A DNA stretch of 64,000 nucleotides, from positions 1-64,000 of the IMG/VR virus record IMGVR_UViG_3300032288_001804, one strand, 5' to 3'. Every line of letters begins with the position of its first letter. Within the stretch, counting starts at the first letter, position 1. The notes beneath the pieces are model-generated. The model ran no database searches and was not told the DNA's origin. It saw only the letters and a program-made list of their open reading frames with translations. The DNA is from a virus. A program made the position numbers and the translations under genes. This document shows positions 1,046 to 13,882 of this stretch, piece by piece.

Positions 1046-1203
1046 ACATATTAAAGGAACTAGCAGTGCAGATGGATAATCTGCGTAACAATAAAACAGT
1101 TCCTTATCTTAACCCCTATAAGGGTATAGATGATTGTGTTGATCTAGTTAACCGCAAAATACGTGAGCTTGAAAGAGAAAAGTCTAATCAAGAAAGTAAC
1201 TAG
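1030..1203 (+). CDS. Small hypothetical protein
   Basis: This 57-aa ORF begins MHNVVDILKELAVQMDNLR and ends in a charged helix rich in Glu, Lys and Arg. It starts inside the end of the GroES-like gene (ATG 1030) and ends (TAG 1201-1203) inside the start of the radical SAM gene, so the three genes are chained by overlaps. The C-terminal half is predicted helical. No family is recognised. Coding is supported mainly by the overlap pattern typical of phage operons and the lack of any alternative use for 1046-1162. Confidence 0.55.
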   Translation: MHNVVDILKELAVQMDNLRNNKTVPYLNPYKGIDDCVDLVNRKIRELEREKSNQESN

Positions 1204-1588
1204 AAAACAATTAAAGATTACTGAATCTGGCCGAAGCACGGACTTTATTGCTCCTAGCTTTGGCCACGGTTGTCTTTATAACTGTAGTTACTGTATAACA
1301 CCTGATACATTAATCAGGACCCCTTCTGGTTTAAGAAGGGCGGGAGAAATTCAGGAAGGAGATTCAATAATTTCTTTTTCCCTGGATACCTGGCAATTTG
1401 AAACAGATCTAGTTTCTGCAGTTGGTGAACGGGATACTGATGAACTTTATGTAATCTCAATAGGTTCAAGAACTGTGAATGTAACTGCTGAGCATCCTTT
1501 CTATACAAAGAATAGAGGTTGGGTAGAAGCAAAAGATCTAACTGTAGATGATGAACTGCTTTATGATACTGATGATTTAGACCAATAA
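1163..1588 (+). CDS. Radical SAM (SplB-like) N-terminal part fused to N-terminal half of a split intein
   Basis: The start is GTG 1163; no ATG is available. Residues 1-43 are the N-extein and contain GHGCLYNCSY, the first two cysteines of a radical SAM CX3CX2C cluster. Residue 44 (Cys, 1292-1294) begins an intein. CITPDTLIRT is the block A splice motif, and VTAEHPFYTKNRGW with downstream L..DDELL is block B with its TxxH-type histidine. The reading frame stops at 1588 after about 98 intein residues, the usual size of an N-intein half. The missing C-intein and C-extein lie in the gene starting at 2137. The ligated product would read GCLYNCSY-CYMKRH, restoring the third cluster cysteine as the +1 splice residue. 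Trans-splicing is inferred from these motifs. Confidence 0.85.
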   Translation: MSLKEKSLIKKVTRKQLKITESGRSTDFIAPSFGHGCLYNCSYCITPDTLIRTPSGLRRAGEIQEGDSIISFSLDTWQFETDLVSAVGERDTDELYVISIGSRTVNVTAEHPFYTKNRGWVEAKDLTVDDELLYDTDDLDQ

Positions 1589-2138
1589 TATTATTGGTAT
1601 CATAAACGTCTATGTTTGCTAAAGCACAGAACCACCTAGGTAATATATGGTGGTAGTCAATGTTATCAGTTAAACCTGATAAAGCACATTCTTTAAAGTC
1701 TAACTGCTTTTTAAGTTTTAACCAGCTACCATCTGTGTAATCTGTGCTTGGAGCATTGCCGTGTATATAGTTAGGATTACCCTTACCTTTATACATAGTA
1801 GATATAGTCCTGCCTTGCTGCTTCTTACCAAGACCTTGTATTCTGCAATGAGTACAATAACCGGCACGAGCTTTAGATTTAGGACTTTGTTCACCGCAGG
1901 TTTTACATATGACCCATTTAGTACTAGCAGATGGTAATGTTTTATCAATAGTAAAAAGGCTACCTTCAAACTTCTTCATAGTTCTGAAGTCCTTGTTATA
2001 AAACTTACCAGCTTCTTGAAAGGTTCTAAACATAGGTTTAGTATCTTGGCTAAATAAAGATGTATAATTTTTTTCACAGGTATCATTGCAATAGGTTGTA
2101 TCCTTTTTTGTAATTTTACCACAATATAAACAGTTCAT
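1314..2138 (-). CDS. HNH homing endonuclease, antisense inside the fractured intein gene
   Basis: This gene is read leftward between and over the two intein halves. The chosen start (CAT 2136-2138) gives MNCLYCGK; a longer upstream ORF would only be antisense to the C-intein. Two zinc-ribbon pairs lie in the N-terminal part (CLYC...CNDTC and CKTC...CTHC). The nuclease core is DYHHILPRW followed by NNIIGLNHQYHKAVHH, a His-His/Asn/His HNH pattern. Its ATG shares bases with the ATG of the C-intein gene at CATG 2136-2139. The HNH motif and about 90 further codons run antisense to the N-intein half up to 1314; whether this tail is needed is unclear. Free-standing endonucleases between split-intein halves are known to spread such fractured genes. 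Confidence 0.8.
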   Translation of the reverse strand: MNCLYCGKITKKDTTYCNDTCEKNYTSLFSQDTKPMFRTFQEAGKFYNKDFRTMKKFEGSLFTIDKTLPSASTKWVICKTCGEQSPKSKARAGYCTHCRIQGLGKKQQGRTISTMYKGKGNPNYIHGNAPSTDYTDGSWLKLKKQLDFKECALSGLTDNIDYHHILPRWFCALANIDVYDTNNIIGLNHQYHKAVHHLQLDLLLLPNLYSLYRKDAQQLHSQFLNLLRLHKVHQYPVHQLQKLDLFQIARYPGKKKLLNLLPEFLPPFLNQKGS

Positions 2139-3015
2139 GAATCTTGAATTTAAAAAGATAACTTCTATTAATAAGATAAGTAAAAATTCTAAGGTTGTCA
2201 ACTTTTCTGTAAAAAATAATGAGAACTACTTTGCAAATGGTGTGTTAACTCATAACTGTTATATGAAACGCCACCGTCCTACGGGAGTACAGGTGGCAGA
2301 TAATGTAGATGATGTATTAGCTGCTATAACTGAGCACTACGTGGACAATGTTTATTCAGATTGGTATAACCAAAATAAGCCTAATCAAACTGATGACCAT
2401 TATATAACCTATGATATAGGTAGTAATGAAGATCTTGCTTTGCATGCTAAGTACTATGATATAGACCATATTTTTAGAACTACATATGGAAGAAGTCATC
2501 TTAAATTCTCGTTTGCTACTAAGTATGTGAACTATGATTTACCTGATGTTTCTGCTAGTATTAGAATTAGGTTTAGTCTTATGCCGCAGAAGTATTCGGA
2601 TGTGCTAGAGCCCGAGACCAGTTCTATTATAGAAAGGATCCAGGCTATAGATAAGTTTATAGATAAGGGTTATGAGGTCCACATTAACTTTAGCCCTGTT
2701 GTAGTAACAGATACTTGGCTAGATGATTACCGAGATTTGTTTATGCTTGTAGATGAGCATGTTACAAATAAGGATAAAGTAAAGTGTGAGGTTATATTTC
2801 TTACCCATAATGAAAAGAAGCATGCGTATAACCTACTGAATAATATCTCCGGCGAGGATATGCTATGGACTCCTGAGATTCAGGAAGATAAGATATCTGG
2901 TAATGGTGAAAAGAATATTAGGTACAAGCATGTGCTAAAGAGAGAGTATATTAATCAGTTTAAAGCACTGCATGATATACTGATACCTTGGTGTACAATA
3001 CGTTATATTTTCTGA
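2137..3015 (+). CDS. C-terminal half of split intein fused to radical SAM (SplB-like) C-terminal part
   Basis: The first 40 residues are a C-intein. VVNFSVKNNENYFANGVL is block F and the following THN|C is block G, with the terminal Asn at residue 40 and the +1 nucleophile Cys 41 (2257-2259). The C-extein (252 aa) begins CYMKRHRPTG and continues with SPL-type signatures such as IRFSLMPQ and GYEVHINFSPVV. Joined to the 43-aa N-extein it gives a protein of about 295 aa similar in layout to spore photoproduct lyase and related radical SAM DNA-repair enzymes, which reverse thymine dimers using an iron-sulfur cluster and S-adenosylmethionine. Substrate is not provable from sequence. The stop at 3013-3015 abuts the next gene. 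Confidence 0.8.
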   Translation: MNLEFKKITSINKISKNSKVVNFSVKNNENYFANGVLTHNCYMKRHRPTGVQVADNVDDVLAAITEHYVDNVYSDWYNQNKPNQTDDHYITYDIGSNEDLALHAKYYDIDHIFRTTYGRSHLKFSFATKYVNYDLPDVSASIRIRFSLMPQKYSDVLEPETSSIIERIQAIDKFIDKGYEVHINFSPVVVTDTWLDDYRDLFMLVDEHVTNKDKVKCEVIFLTHNEKKHAYNLLNNISGEDMLWTPEIQEDKISGNGEKNIRYKHVLKREYINQFKALHDILIPWCTIRYIF

Positions 3016-3016
3016 T

Positions 3017-3325
3017 ATGAAAACAAGTTATAGAAACAGGCATGGTGATGTAATCACCTTTGAGAAAAAAGATAATGTAATAGAGATGACTGGTTTTGGT
3101 GAACACTTCCGCTTAGGAGGATGGCCCAGTGAAAAAGGGTTTCCTAACTATAAGTTTTCTATGATAGACCCTAGCGGTGGACCATACATTACTGCGCAAG
3201 CAGAGTGGCATGGTGAAGAGATGAGCGGTACAGATATGGGAGATTTCCTATATGACTGGCAAGGTCTTAAAATAGAATACATTACAGTAGAAGAAGGGTT
3301 AGCTAAATTACATTTATGTCATTGA
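3017..3325 (+). CDS. Hypothetical protein
   Basis: This 102-aa protein has a mixed beta-rich composition with many aromatic residues and glycines (for example FGEHFRLGGWPSEKGFPNYKF). It has no signal peptide or membrane segment. It starts one base after the stop of the radical SAM gene and its end overlaps the next start by 10 bases, so it is part of the same transcript. I recognise no family. Confidence 0.6.
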   Translation: MKTSYRNRHGDVITFEKKDNVIEMTGFGEHFRLGGWPSEKGFPNYKFSMIDPSGGPYITAQAEWHGEEMSGTDMGDFLYDWQGLKIEYITVEEGLAKLHLCH

Positions 3326-3943: not shown

Positions 3944-4271
3944 GAACTTAGAGATAGATCCTTTGGGGTCTGCTAAGCTAGGCTTATTTATTAAAGGATT
4001 ACAAGAAGGTGAAACAGTTATTATCACCTATGAAGTTCAAACTGAAGATGCTAGCTATGCTCAAATAAGCAAAGTACATAAGCATATTCGCGAACTTGCT
4101 AACTATACTGGAGACTCATTTGAAGATATGAAGCTTCAAGTTAAGTTGCGTGCAGGACTTTGCACTGACACTAACTGTAAGTCATTTTCGGAATGTGATA
4201 AAGAAGAATTATCTATGGCTATTCAGGCTTCGATTGAGATTGGGGAGCTTGTGGGTTTTTCTCTGTATTAA
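3897..4271 (+). CDS. Hypothetical protein, weakly NinB-like
   Basis: I chose ATG 3897 (MANQLPVSIRAKV) rather than the upstream in-frame start at 3852, which is fully antiparallel in purpose with the AT-hook tail. The 124-aa product has a beta-rich N-terminus (GETVIITYEVQTEDAS) then a helical part, and a C-terminal SFSECDKEELSMAIQASIEIGE pattern that recalls the end of NinB-type recombination proteins, where an ST-rich strand precedes a helix. The match is weak. The 3' end overlaps a convergent gene on the other strand by about 53 bases. Confidence 0.55.
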   Translation: MANQLPVSIRAKVVNKNLEIDPLGSAKLGLFIKGLQEGETVIITYEVQTEDASYAQISKVHKHIRELANYTGDSFEDMKLQVKLRAGLCTDTNCKSFSECDKEELSMAIQASIEIGELVGFSLY

Positions 4272-4566
4272 CCCGTTCTCCAGTTTCAATATCTATTTCA
4301 ATTTCTTCCATTAGACCTTGTTCTTCAGCAAGGTCTTCTAGGAAGATTTGAAATGCCATGACGGTATATATATGATAGGCTAGCGGGGTTTCTTGCTTGC
4401 CTTCTTTTATATCCTCCATGATTTGCTTAAAGTGCTCTTTATCTTTGTATTCAAAGTGTTCACCGAGCATTTTATTAAATCTATAATAGAAAATACCGGG
4501 TATTTCAGCTTTGATAACTTTACTCTTATCAATGATTTTTACCTTTTGGGTTTTCTTTTCAGACAT
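4219..4566 (-). CDS. Isolated leftward gene, hypothetical acidic protein
   Basis: This is one of only two minus-strand genes inside the rightward block. Using ATG 4566 (MSEKKTQKVKII) the product is 115 aa, helical, with an acidic centre and a disordered C-terminal tail ending NPQAPQSQSKPE. The longer upstream ORF would run over the start of the UDG gene, so I discount it. It starts 24 bases from the divergent UDG start and ends 53 bases inside the preceding gene. Its position suggests a separately regulated product such as a repressor or late accessory protein, but it has no DNA-binding motif that I can see. Confidence 0.6.
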   Translation of the reverse strand: MSEKKTQKVKIIDKSKVIKAEIPGIFYYRFNKMLGEHFEYKDKEHFKQIMEDIKEGKQETPLAYHIYTVMAFQIFLEDLAEEQGLMEEIEIDIETGERVNTEKNPQAPQSQSKPE

Positions 4567-4590
4567 AATAATTTTATTTGTAACAAACTT

Positions 4591-5292
4591 ATGACTCAAG
4601 AAGTTAACATACAAGAAATTAGTCAAAAACTTTATGATAAGGTAAGAGACAAAGGATGGAATAAACTTCGCACTTTTTTATTATCATCTGATATGGATGA
4701 TATCTTAGAAAAATTAGTGAAAGAAGTTGAGCAAGGTAAACGCTTTACTCCTCCTGTTAAAAGTCTATTTACCGCTTTGGAAAAATGCCCTATAGATAAC
4801 GTTAGAGTAGTTATTATAGGACAAGATCCCTATCCACAATTAGGTGTTGCGGATGGTATTGCGTTTAGTTGTGGCAATACAGGTAAGATTGAGAAATCAT
4901 TACAGTATATGCATAGTTCAATTAAAGATACTGTTGATGCGGAATATGTAGGAAGTCCTGATTTGTCCCCTTGGGTGGAGCAGGGTGTGCTTATGTTAAA
5001 CTCAGCATTAACTACAACTATTGGCAAACCAGGTACGCACCAAGAATTGTGGCAACCGTTTATGGCCTATCTCCTAGATATACTGACTCATCATAAAGAT
5101 GGTTTAGTATATGTATTTTTAGGTAAGAAAGCGCAAGAATTTGCTGATATGGTACCAGATAGCAATCACAAGATTATGGTATCACATCCTGCTAGTGCTG
5201 CATATAATGGAAGTAAGTGGGACTGTAACGACATGTGGAATAAAATTAATAAACACCTAGAAGAAAATGGTCAATCCCCTATATCCTGGTAG
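4591..5292 (+). CDS. ung: Uracil-DNA glycosylase (family 1)
   Basis: The product (233 aa from ATG 4591, MTQEVNIQEISQ) matches the size of bacterial Ung. The water-activating motif appears as VVIIGQDPYP with the catalytic Asp, followed by ADGIAFS. The C-terminal uracil-binding loop is SHPASAAYNG with the key His, in place of HPSPLSA. It removes uracil from DNA, initiating base-excision repair, and is common in crAss-like phages. The longer ORF to 4393 is antisense to the leftward gene and is not used. Its end overlaps the next gene by 26 bases. Confidence 0.93.
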   Translation: MTQEVNIQEISQKLYDKVRDKGWNKLRTFLLSSDMDDILEKLVKEVEQGKRFTPPVKSLFTALEKCPIDNVRVVIIGQDPYPQLGVADGIAFSCGNTGKIEKSLQYMHSSIKDTVDAEYVGSPDLSPWVEQGVLMLNSALTTTIGKPGTHQELWQPFMAYLLDILTHHKDGLVYVFLGKKAQEFADMVPDSNHKIMVSHPASAAYNGSKWDCNDMWNKINKHLEENGQSPISW

Positions 5293-13055: not shown

Positions 13056-13086
13056 TTGTATGTATGATTATTTTGTTGTATCTTTG
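13056..13086 (+). promoter_or_regulatory. Bacteroidota-type promoter for the HNH gene
   Basis: TTG at 13056 and TATCTTTG at 13079-13086 match the -33 TTTG and -7 TAnnTTTG elements with about 20 bases between them. An AAAGGG ribosome-binding site (13093-13098) lies 7 bases before the HNH ATG. The insert therefore seems to carry its own expression signals. Confidence 0.6.
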
Positions 13087-13105
13087 TATTATAAAGGGAT
13101 GCCAC

Positions 13106-13882
13106 ATGAAACATATATTAAAGCAAGGAGAAGTTATAACTGATAAACTTGGACAAGATACCAAACTTATTTATTTAGATGAGGCCGGTTATAAAGGAAA
13201 AGGAATGCGGTACATAAAAGTACAATGCCTTTCCTGTAAAGAAGATCATATAAAACAATATGCTTCAATTAGAGCTGGTTATATATCTACTTGTGGTGCA
13301 AAGTCTTGTAAAGTATCTAACCCATCACTGCATAAAATATCTTATAAACCAGGCCAACTAATACCTAATACAAGTTTTGTATACCTAGAGGAGGACATAC
13401 AGAAAAGTACATCTAATCATAGATACTTTAAAGTACAGTGCTCTTGTGATATTATAACTAGCATTAGAGTAGATAAGTTAAAAGGAACATGTAGAAAATG
13501 TGCTGATAAAAAAAGAAGAGAGTCCTTTACTCAAAAAAATAAAGAGAGTCTAATAAAGAATATTAGGAACTCTTATAAAAAAAATGCTTTACAAAGAGGT
13601 TATAGTTTTGAACTATCTGATAACTACTTTACAGATCTTATCTTTAGTAACTGTTATTATTGTAATGTAACACCTAATAATAAAATAAAAAAAGGTAACA
13701 AGTCAATATGCTATAATGGTGTTGACCGTAAAGATAATAACGATAACTATACAGAAAGCAACTGTGTTCCTTGTTGTGGAAAATGTAATATTATGAAAAA
13801 CAAATGGTCTCATGATGACTTTCTTAGTCACATAACTAAAATTATTAATAACTTTAATACAGAAGAAAATGCATCCGTATGA
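13106..13882 (+). CDS. HNH homing endonuclease
   Basis: The start ATG 13106 (MKHILKQGEVI) has the AAAGGG site upstream. The 258-aa protein has several zinc-binding pairs in the N-terminal 140 residues (CLSCK, CGAKSC, CSC, CRKC) and a C-terminal HNH core with CYYC, YNGVDRKDNNDNYTESNCVPCC and CNIMKN. This is the GVDRxDN..Y...N..pCC..CN pattern of free-standing HNH homing enzymes. It sits where a DUF6915-like gene has been interrupted, and its last codons overlap the re-formed start of that gene (13869). It probably spreads the insert. Confidence 0.85.
   Translation: MKHILKQGEVITDKLGQDTKLIYLDEAGYKGKGMRYIKVQCLSCKEDHIKQYASIRAGYISTCGAKSCKVSNPSLHKISYKPGQLIPNTSFVYLEEDIQKSTSNHRYFKVQCSCDIITSIRVDKLKGTCRKCADKKRRESFTQKNKESLIKNIRNSYKKNALQRGYSFELSDNYFTDLIFSNCYYCNVTPNNKIKKGNKSICYNGVDRKDNNDNYTESNCVPCCGKCNIMKNKWSHDDFLSHITKIINNFNTEENASV

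What the first reader, a model, noticed from the sequence alone, without database searches (positions are those of the whole stretch)
1163..3015. Radical SAM gene fractured by a split intein, with an antisense HNH endonuclease gene between the halves
The + strand encodes extein-N plus intein-N (1163-1588) and intein-C plus extein-C (2137-3015). All splice motifs are present: CITPDTLI, the TAEH block, and VLTHN|C. Splicing would restore the CX3CX2C cluster of a radical SAM enzyme, with the third cluster Cys as the splice nucleophile, so the enzyme cannot work until spliced. Split inteins with endonucleases between the halves are known, but here the endonuclease is on the opposite strand and the host gene is an SplB-like repair enzyme. 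This placement could be a new fractured-gene arrangement.
Basis: partly seen in the sequence, partly recalled or inferred. Interest (0 to 1): 0.92.

Follow-up and report, generated by a model that had tools for sequence, protein, structure and literature searches.

The report
Endonuclease gene antisense to split intein
In a group of crAss-like phages, a DNA-repair-type enzyme gene is cut in two by a split intein, and a presumed homing endonuclease gene runs backwards through the break so that its last third is written on the opposite strand of the intein's own coding sequence, which ties the two selfish parts together in the same DNA.

Summary
An SPL-type radical SAM gene is broken at its CX3CX2C cluster by a split intein: IntN 98 aa, stop, 548 nt, IntC 40 aa. 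The antisense HNH gene does not merely lie between the halves. Its 274-codon ORF (2138 down to 1314) has its last ~90 codons antisense to almost all of IntN. Its start codon shares the bases CATG (2136-2139) with the IntC start codon.

The arrangement is conserved in about 40 IMG/VR contigs and in two lineages with only 35-42% IntN identity. Codon statistics show dual coding. IntN synonymous divergence drops from 0.59 outside the overlap to 0.11 inside it. Substitutions inside the overlap follow the HNH frame (dN/dS 0.38) rather than the IntN frame (0.95). The third HNH histidine lies in the overlap.

Intein-free alleles, mostly over 85% identical in the flanks, show a precise insertion. No SPL-site intein found lacks the HNH, and no complete copy is broken. 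Splicing and homing are inferred, not shown. This is a new variant of the known "fractured gene": a homing endonuclease and a split intein sharing one stretch of DNA in antisense. I found no precedent in the papers held; the defining 2009 paper is not held.

The parts
1163..1291 (+). Extein-N (43 aa from GTG 1163), ending GCLYNCSY; first two cluster Cys at 1271-1273 and 1283-1285
   Evidence: 97.7% identical over 43 aa to contiguous intein-free alleles L002-L005
1292..1588 (+). Intein-N (98 aa + TAA), block A CITPDTLI, block B TAEH
   Evidence: PF07591 1.3e-10, TIGR01445 5.7e-5; 98 aa in nearly all relatives
1314..2138 (-). Antisense HNH endonuclease ORF, 274 codons from ATG 2138-2136, stop TGA 1316-1314; N-terminal Cys motifs, H163/H164-N183-H192
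   Evidence: (phrog_8048 HNH 1.1e-4)
1314..1588 (.). Antisense dual-coding overlap (275 nt): HNH codons >=184 against IntN codons ~8-98
   Evidence: conserved in 36 complete copies (272-293 nt) and in L124, L188
2136..2139 (.). CATG: shared, divergent, overlapping start codons of HNH (-) and IntC (+)
   Evidence: kept in all main-clade copies except L016/L017 (and L070, L092, the same contigs), where HNH has ATA here and an ATG 3 codons upstream
2137..2256 (+). Intein-C (40 aa) ending ANGVLTHN
   Evidence: TIGR01443 4.6e-4 (cut-off passed), PF14890 3.3e-4; A4
2257..3015 (+). Extein-C (252 aa + stop); Cys+1 at 2257-2259 is the third cluster Cys
   Evidence: TIGR03886 2.3e-71 (below its cut-off), PF20903

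Best explanation
A mobile split-intein cassette of about 965 bp sits in the Fe-S cluster motif of a phage SPL-type radical SAM gene. The two host halves are made as separate proteins and rejoined by protein trans-splicing, which restores CLYNCSYC (inferred from motifs). An HNH homing endonuclease, encoded on the opposite strand from a start codon overlapping that of IntC, cuts intein-free alleles at the CX3CX2C-coding site, so the cassette is copied in by repair (inferred). The C-terminal third of the endonuclease, including the third HNH histidine and a helical tail, is encoded antisense to IntN. Both proteins are under selection over the same ~270 bp (shown statistically). A consequence (inferred) is that the endonuclease cannot easily be deleted or decay without damaging the intein that the host gene needs. 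Splicing and nuclease parts are thus locked together.
For: Conservation: the same layout in 36 complete copies, with 272-293 nt overlap and every HNH ORF intact, and in L124 and L188. Zero indels over 968 nt in 30 loci at 82% mean identity among 19 non-redundant copies. Dual coding: IntN wobble mismatch 0.52 outside vs 0.09 inside the overlap; IntN-frame pS 0.59 vs 0.11; dN/dS 0.95 in the IntN frame vs 0.38 in the HNH frame; wobble changes on the tree 0.74 vs 2.85 (IntC, p=9e-8) and 2.89 (HNH-only, p=8e-19). The HNH phase is open while the other two antisense phases hold 4-7 stops; P(open) under synonymous recoding is at most 0.015 per sequence. Tail similarity to L124 and L188 exceeds the synonymous null (P 3e-4 and <3e-4). 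Fold: AF2 pLDDT 77, beta-beta-alpha at 160-197 mostly 80-91, helices 200-229 at 79-89, with residues >=184 encoded in the overlap. Mobility: intein-free alleles with flanks mostly 0.85-1.0 identical and an exact junction TAC|TGT; the window nests in a clade of empty alleles (95/90); the occupied records searched have two half hits and no intact copy.
Against: No experiment shows splicing, HNH expression or cleavage. HNH assignment rests on weak profile hits (phrog 1.1e-4; colicin E7 E 0.08) and weak Foldseek hits (best E 0.086), plus the invariant H-H..N..H pattern. No convincing promoter for the antisense gene was found (no excess over shuffles). The last ~45 residues of HNH are modelled at low confidence.
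Confidence: 0.85

Rival explanations
1. Ordinary fractured gene with an antisense HEG; the real HNH ends near the IntN stop and the tail ORF is open only by chance or because of IntN codon constraint.
For: IntN is needed for splicing and block B is conserved, so some antisense residues follow automatically.
Against: IntN wobble sites, free under this model, are nearly frozen inside the overlap and free just outside it; substitutions follow the HNH frame. Openness is unlikely under synonymous recoding in every sequence. The tail is homologous in L124 and L188.
Confidence: 0.05
2. The overlap is frozen by a DNA- or RNA-level signal (antisense regulation, RNA structure, nuclease site), not by HNH protein selection.
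For: A strong hairpin spans the IntN stop in the window (1560-1606); sense and antisense transcripts would be complementary over about 800 nt.
Against: The hairpin is not conserved in relatives. The HNH frame keeps a codon signature (pS 0.195 vs pN 0.080), whereas a frame-blind signal gives no such bias.
Confidence: 0.05
3. The intein is no longer split in practice: an RNA intron, bypass or recoding joins the halves.
For: Both halves are on one strand and close together.
Against: No Rfam intron. IntN ends in a stop (TAA, TGA or TAG) at nearly the same place, IntC starts with ATG, and the halves are out of frame by 2 nt (548-nt gap). An IntN ending in a stop and an ATG-initiated IntC are also seen in other split inteins retrieved.
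Confidence: 0.03
4. Decayed gene: SPL is a pseudogene broken by an HEG and the intein is a relic.
For: dN/dS of IntN in the overlap is about 1.
Against: IntC dN/dS is 0.21, splice residues are invariant, and extein ORFs are intact at 50-60% identity.
Confidence: 0.02

Closest known systems
Fractured genes with split inteins (Dassa et al. 2009, doi 10.1093/nar/gkp095; known from its citation and from memory, not held)
   Same: A conserved enzyme gene broken by a naturally split intein with an endonuclease gene in the break; phage context
   Different: The endonuclease is antisense, HNH-like, and shares ~270 bp of coding sequence with IntN and its start codon with IntC. I could not check whether any of their 26 loci has an antisense gene.
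ShiLan hidden HNH element in phage methylases (PMC11855218)
   Same: An HNH endonuclease read out of frame within an inserted, homing element
   Different: [quoted passage not shown] Here the partner frame is a conserved splicing domain on the other strand.
Antisense HEGs in nuclear group I introns (PMC9548176)
   Same: A homing endonuclease encoded antisense to the host gene inside a self-removing element
   Different: Eukaryotic rDNA; the HEG is an insertion in a peripheral segment (P9.2), not described as overlapping a second coding sequence
Radical-SAM-cluster inteins, such as the Rv2578c family (NCBIfam NF038136) and L191, L192, L145 here
   Same: Intein in the CX3CX2C region of a radical SAM protein
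   Different: Contiguous (L145), with a sense HNH fused to IntN (L191), or with no HEG gene (L192)
NrdJ-1 split intein (PDB 8ubs)
   Same: IntN profile match, E 6e-10
   Different: Different host gene; no antisense HEG examined here

Membership tests
Split intein / Hint domain | Block A nucleophile, block B TxxH, block F, block G HN + C+1 extein | tested here: met
   Conserved in A2 and A4; TIGR01443 above cut-off, PF07591 above cut-off
Split intein / Hint domain | Trans-splicing activity | not testable with these tools
   Needs co-expression
Fractured gene (Dassa 2009 arrangement) | Host gene in two ORFs, split at the intein, with an endonuclease gene in the break | tested here: met
Fractured gene (Dassa 2009 arrangement) | Endonuclease free-standing between the halves (not overlapping the intein coding sequence) | tested here: not met
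   Overlap 272-293 nt in 36 copies
Fractured gene (Dassa 2009 arrangement) | Orientation of the endonuclease in the original 26 loci | not testable with these tools
   Paper not held
HNH endonuclease | H-N-H residues and beta-beta-alpha-metal fold | tested here: met
   H163, H164, N183, H192 invariant in 23 sequences; beta-beta-alpha in AF2 at pLDDT mostly 80-91; phrog_8048 1.1e-4
HNH endonuclease | Significant match to a solved HNH structure or a Pfam HNH family | tested here: inconclusive
   Colicin E7 E 0.08; Foldseek E 0.086; no Pfam HNH hit
Homing endonuclease | Cuts the intein-free allele at the insertion site | not testable with these tools
   Empty sites exist; cleavage not assayed
SPL radical SAM family (PF20903) | Profile score above gathering; CX3CX2C restored on splicing | tested here: met
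   71.8 bits vs 27 for the joined exteins
TIGR03886 equivalog | Score above curated cut-off (437.55) | tested here: not met
   240.8 bits for the C half; 281-285 for contiguous alleles

The most novel reading that the evidence does not exclude
The antisense overlap is an evolved lock. The HNH gene extended by overprinting into the strand opposite IntN, creating a new C-terminal domain. It thereby tied nuclease survival to the splicing function the host needs, and so escaped the usual cycle in which the endonuclease decays first and leaves a mini-intein.
Probability: 0.4. Interest if true: 0.92.

Novelty: new variant of a known kind. Interest (0 to 1): 0.8.

Why it matters
Long antisense pairs in which both frames are demonstrably protein-coding are rare: antisense overlaps are 6.6% of viral overlaps and the median overlap in DNA viruses is about 16 nt (PMC8903798). 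Here both partners have assigned roles, one a protein-splicing domain and one a nuclease, and ~40 natural copies allow strong tests. It suggests a way for a homing endonuclease to avoid decay, which makes the homing-cycle model testable. It also offers natural split inteins and a possible site-specific nuclease for the radical SAM cluster motif.

Tried and rejected
Group I/II intron: no Rfam hit in the window. Unbroken paralogue in the own record: none; none in nine occupied relatives. HNH relatives in INPHARED and GTDB genomes (none confirmed): none. First AF2 model from 19 similar sequences was poor (pLDDT 60); adding more distant rows including L124 and L188 raised it to 77. Foldseek gave no significant match. 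Hairpin at the IntN stop is not conserved. Promoter and terminator scans show no excess. Other inteins hit by the profiles (L125-L156, most of L190-L229) were screened by ORF extents, a few read in full: contiguous inteins, or split ones with a sense-strand ORF or none in the gap; none was recognised with this antisense HNH.

Full report
WHAT IS THERE. The window belongs to a 96,427-base IMG/VR virus record. It is crAss-like: its terminase best matches are crAss-like phages such as cr55_1 and cr1_1 and phages of Bacteroides, Flavobacterium and Cellulophaga. Near its left end the + strand holds two ORFs. 1163-1588 is a 43-aa extein ending GCLYNCSY followed by a 98-aa intein N-half and a TAA. 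2137-3015 is a 40-aa intein C-half ending THN followed by a 252-aa extein beginning CYMKRH. Profiles identify PF07591/TIGR01445 for IntN, TIGR01443/PF14890 for IntC, and PF20903 (spore photoproduct lyase) for the exteins; the score rises from 51 to 72 bits when the exteins are joined. The C-half (240.8 bits) and the contiguous alleles of relatives (281-285 bits) stay below the TIGR03886 equivalog cut-off (437.55), so I call it an SPL-type radical SAM protein, not that equivalog.

THE ANTISENSE GENE. On the - strand an ORF starts at ATG 2138 and runs 274 codons to TGA at 1316-1314. It carries N-terminal Cys pairs and an HNH pattern, HH(163,164)...N183...H192. Its start codon and the IntC start codon share CATG (2136-2139), and its last ~90 codons are antisense to all but the first ~22 bases of IntN.

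CONSERVATION. tblastn-confirmed relatives in IMG/VR fall into two kinds: intein-free contiguous SPL genes (L002-L012, L043, L044) and genes with exactly this cassette. In 30 cassettes measured base by base there is no net length change in 968 nt: the IntN stop to IntC start gap is 548 nt in all but one (539 where the IntN stop has moved, L020), and the HNH ORF is 273-276 codons. Across all 36 copies with complete HNH and IntN, the HNH ORF is intact and overlaps IntN by 272-293 nt. All HNH relatives found lie in this one context. No confirmed relative was found in GTDB genomes or INPHARED phages. Intein-profile searches found two deep lineages with the same anatomy. L124 has IntN identity 35% and antisense ORF 4026-4913. 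L188 has IntN identity 42%; its antisense ORF passes through the whole IntN and ends 17 bases inside extein-N.

IS THE OVERLAP REALLY DUAL-CODING? The phase pairs IntN wobble with HNH codon position 2, and HNH wobble with IntN position 2. If only IntN mattered, IntN wobble should be the freest site. In 19 non-redundant cassettes the opposite is seen. Mean pairwise mismatch at IntN wobble sites is 0.52 in the 24 bases outside the overlap and 0.09 inside it, while IntN position 2 is the most variable (0.13). In Nei-Gojobori counts, IntN-frame pS falls from 0.59 to 0.11 and dN/dS is 0.95 inside the overlap; read in the HNH frame the same DNA has dN/dS 0.38. IntC (0.21) and the non-overlapping HNH (0.22) are normal. 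Changes on the tree at wobble sites: 0.74 per site inside, against 5.0 (IntN outside), 2.85 (IntC) and 2.89 (HNH-only), with p = 5e-7, 9e-8 and 8e-19. The site-wise excess of position 2 over position 3 alone is not significant (p 0.16). The HNH phase is open up to its own stop codon in every sequence while the other two antisense phases hold 4-7 stops; resampling synonymous codons by genomic usage keeps it open in at most 1.5% of trials. Against L124 and L188 the tail is more similar than synonymous resampling allows. These sequences are related, so the per-sequence probabilities are not independent.

STRUCTURE. With 23 sequences AlphaFold2 gives mean pLDDT 77, with strand 160-164, strand 184-188 and helix 189-197 in blocks of mostly 80-91 (the beta-beta-alpha-metal layout), then helices 200-229 at 79-89; the last ~45 residues are uncertain. 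Residues from 184 on, including H192, are encoded in the overlap, so an HNH ending at the IntN stop would lack its third histidine. Fold matches to HNH nucleases are weak (best E 0.086).

MOBILITY. The flanks of the window gene match intein-free alleles mostly at 0.85-1.0 per 60-base block, with one 60-base block near 0.72-0.77, and the junction is exact at TAC|TGT with no duplication. The extein tree nests the window within a clade of six empty alleles (95/90), and empty L043 and L044 lie among occupied ones, though parts of the tree are poorly resolved. That is the sporadic pattern of a homing element (inference). Nine occupied records contain only two half hits to TIGR03886 and no intact copy; two empty records have one contiguous hit.

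HOW IT PROBABLY WORKS. Shown: gene layout, dual-coding constraint, precise empty/occupied alleles. Inferred: trans-splicing of the halves; HNH cleavage of empty alleles and repair-mediated copying; antisense transcription from an unidentified promoter. Because HNH and IntN share bases, many lesions in HNH would also alter IntN, and deletion of the whole HNH ORF would remove IntN. None of the SPL-site inteins retrieved by searches that did not use the HNH, where enough sequence is held to judge, lacks it. That fits a lock against decay but does not prove it. Whether the tail arose by overprinting is open: no homologue of the tail outside this family was found.

RELATION TO KNOWN SYSTEMS. It works like the fractured genes of Dassa et al. 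2009 but fails the feature 'endonuclease between, not over, the intein halves', and its nuclease is HNH-like. That paper is not in the library, so I could not check orientation in its 26 loci. Other split inteins retrieved here have a sense-strand ORF or none in the gap. ShiLan (PMC11855218) hides an HNH in another frame of an inserted element. Group I introns can carry antisense HEGs (PMC9548176). None of these is described as encoding the nuclease antisense to the splicing domain itself. A search for split intein + homing endonuclease + overlapping genes returned no paper.

Noticed in passing
L036:241-1013 (+): Upstream of the intact split SPL gene lies a truncated copy of extein-N followed by an ORF that looks like a GIY-YIG homing endonuclease (MVGIYKIQ...VYIGYS; by motif only): a second kind of HEG at the same locus.
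   Followed up: partly
L030:2634-2741 and 3150-3269: Two copies of the SPL 5' end flank a 137-aa ORF, suggesting repeated insertions or gene conversions at this locus.
   Followed up: partly
L192:3187-4933; L191:2695-4990; L145: Other radical SAM genes carry inteins in the CX3CX2C region: split without HEG (L192), split with a sense-strand HNH-like domain fused to IntN (L191), contiguous (L145). The cluster motif is a repeated intein target.
   Followed up: partly
window 1560-1606: A strong hairpin (10-bp outer stem plus CCAATAATATTATTGG) spans the IntN stop codon in the window; not conserved in relatives.
   Followed up: yes
window 13064-13882 (+): Another HNH / endonuclease VII-like gene (phrog_3322, 1.1e-11), probably a free-standing homing endonuclease.
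   Followed up: no
window 4393-5292 (+): Apparent uracil-DNA glycosylase (motif GQDPYP), close to the SPL gene; by motif only, PHROG match is to a family of unknown function.
   Followed up: no
L124:3965-4003 and 4984: In this lineage the spacing before the insertion is CLGGCMKSY|C, i.e. CX3CX4C instead of CX3CX2C, so cluster binding there may differ.
   Followed up: no
window 1271-1294: The unspliced N-half ends CLYNCSY-C1, so intein Cys1 mimics the third cluster cysteine before splicing.
   Followed up: no
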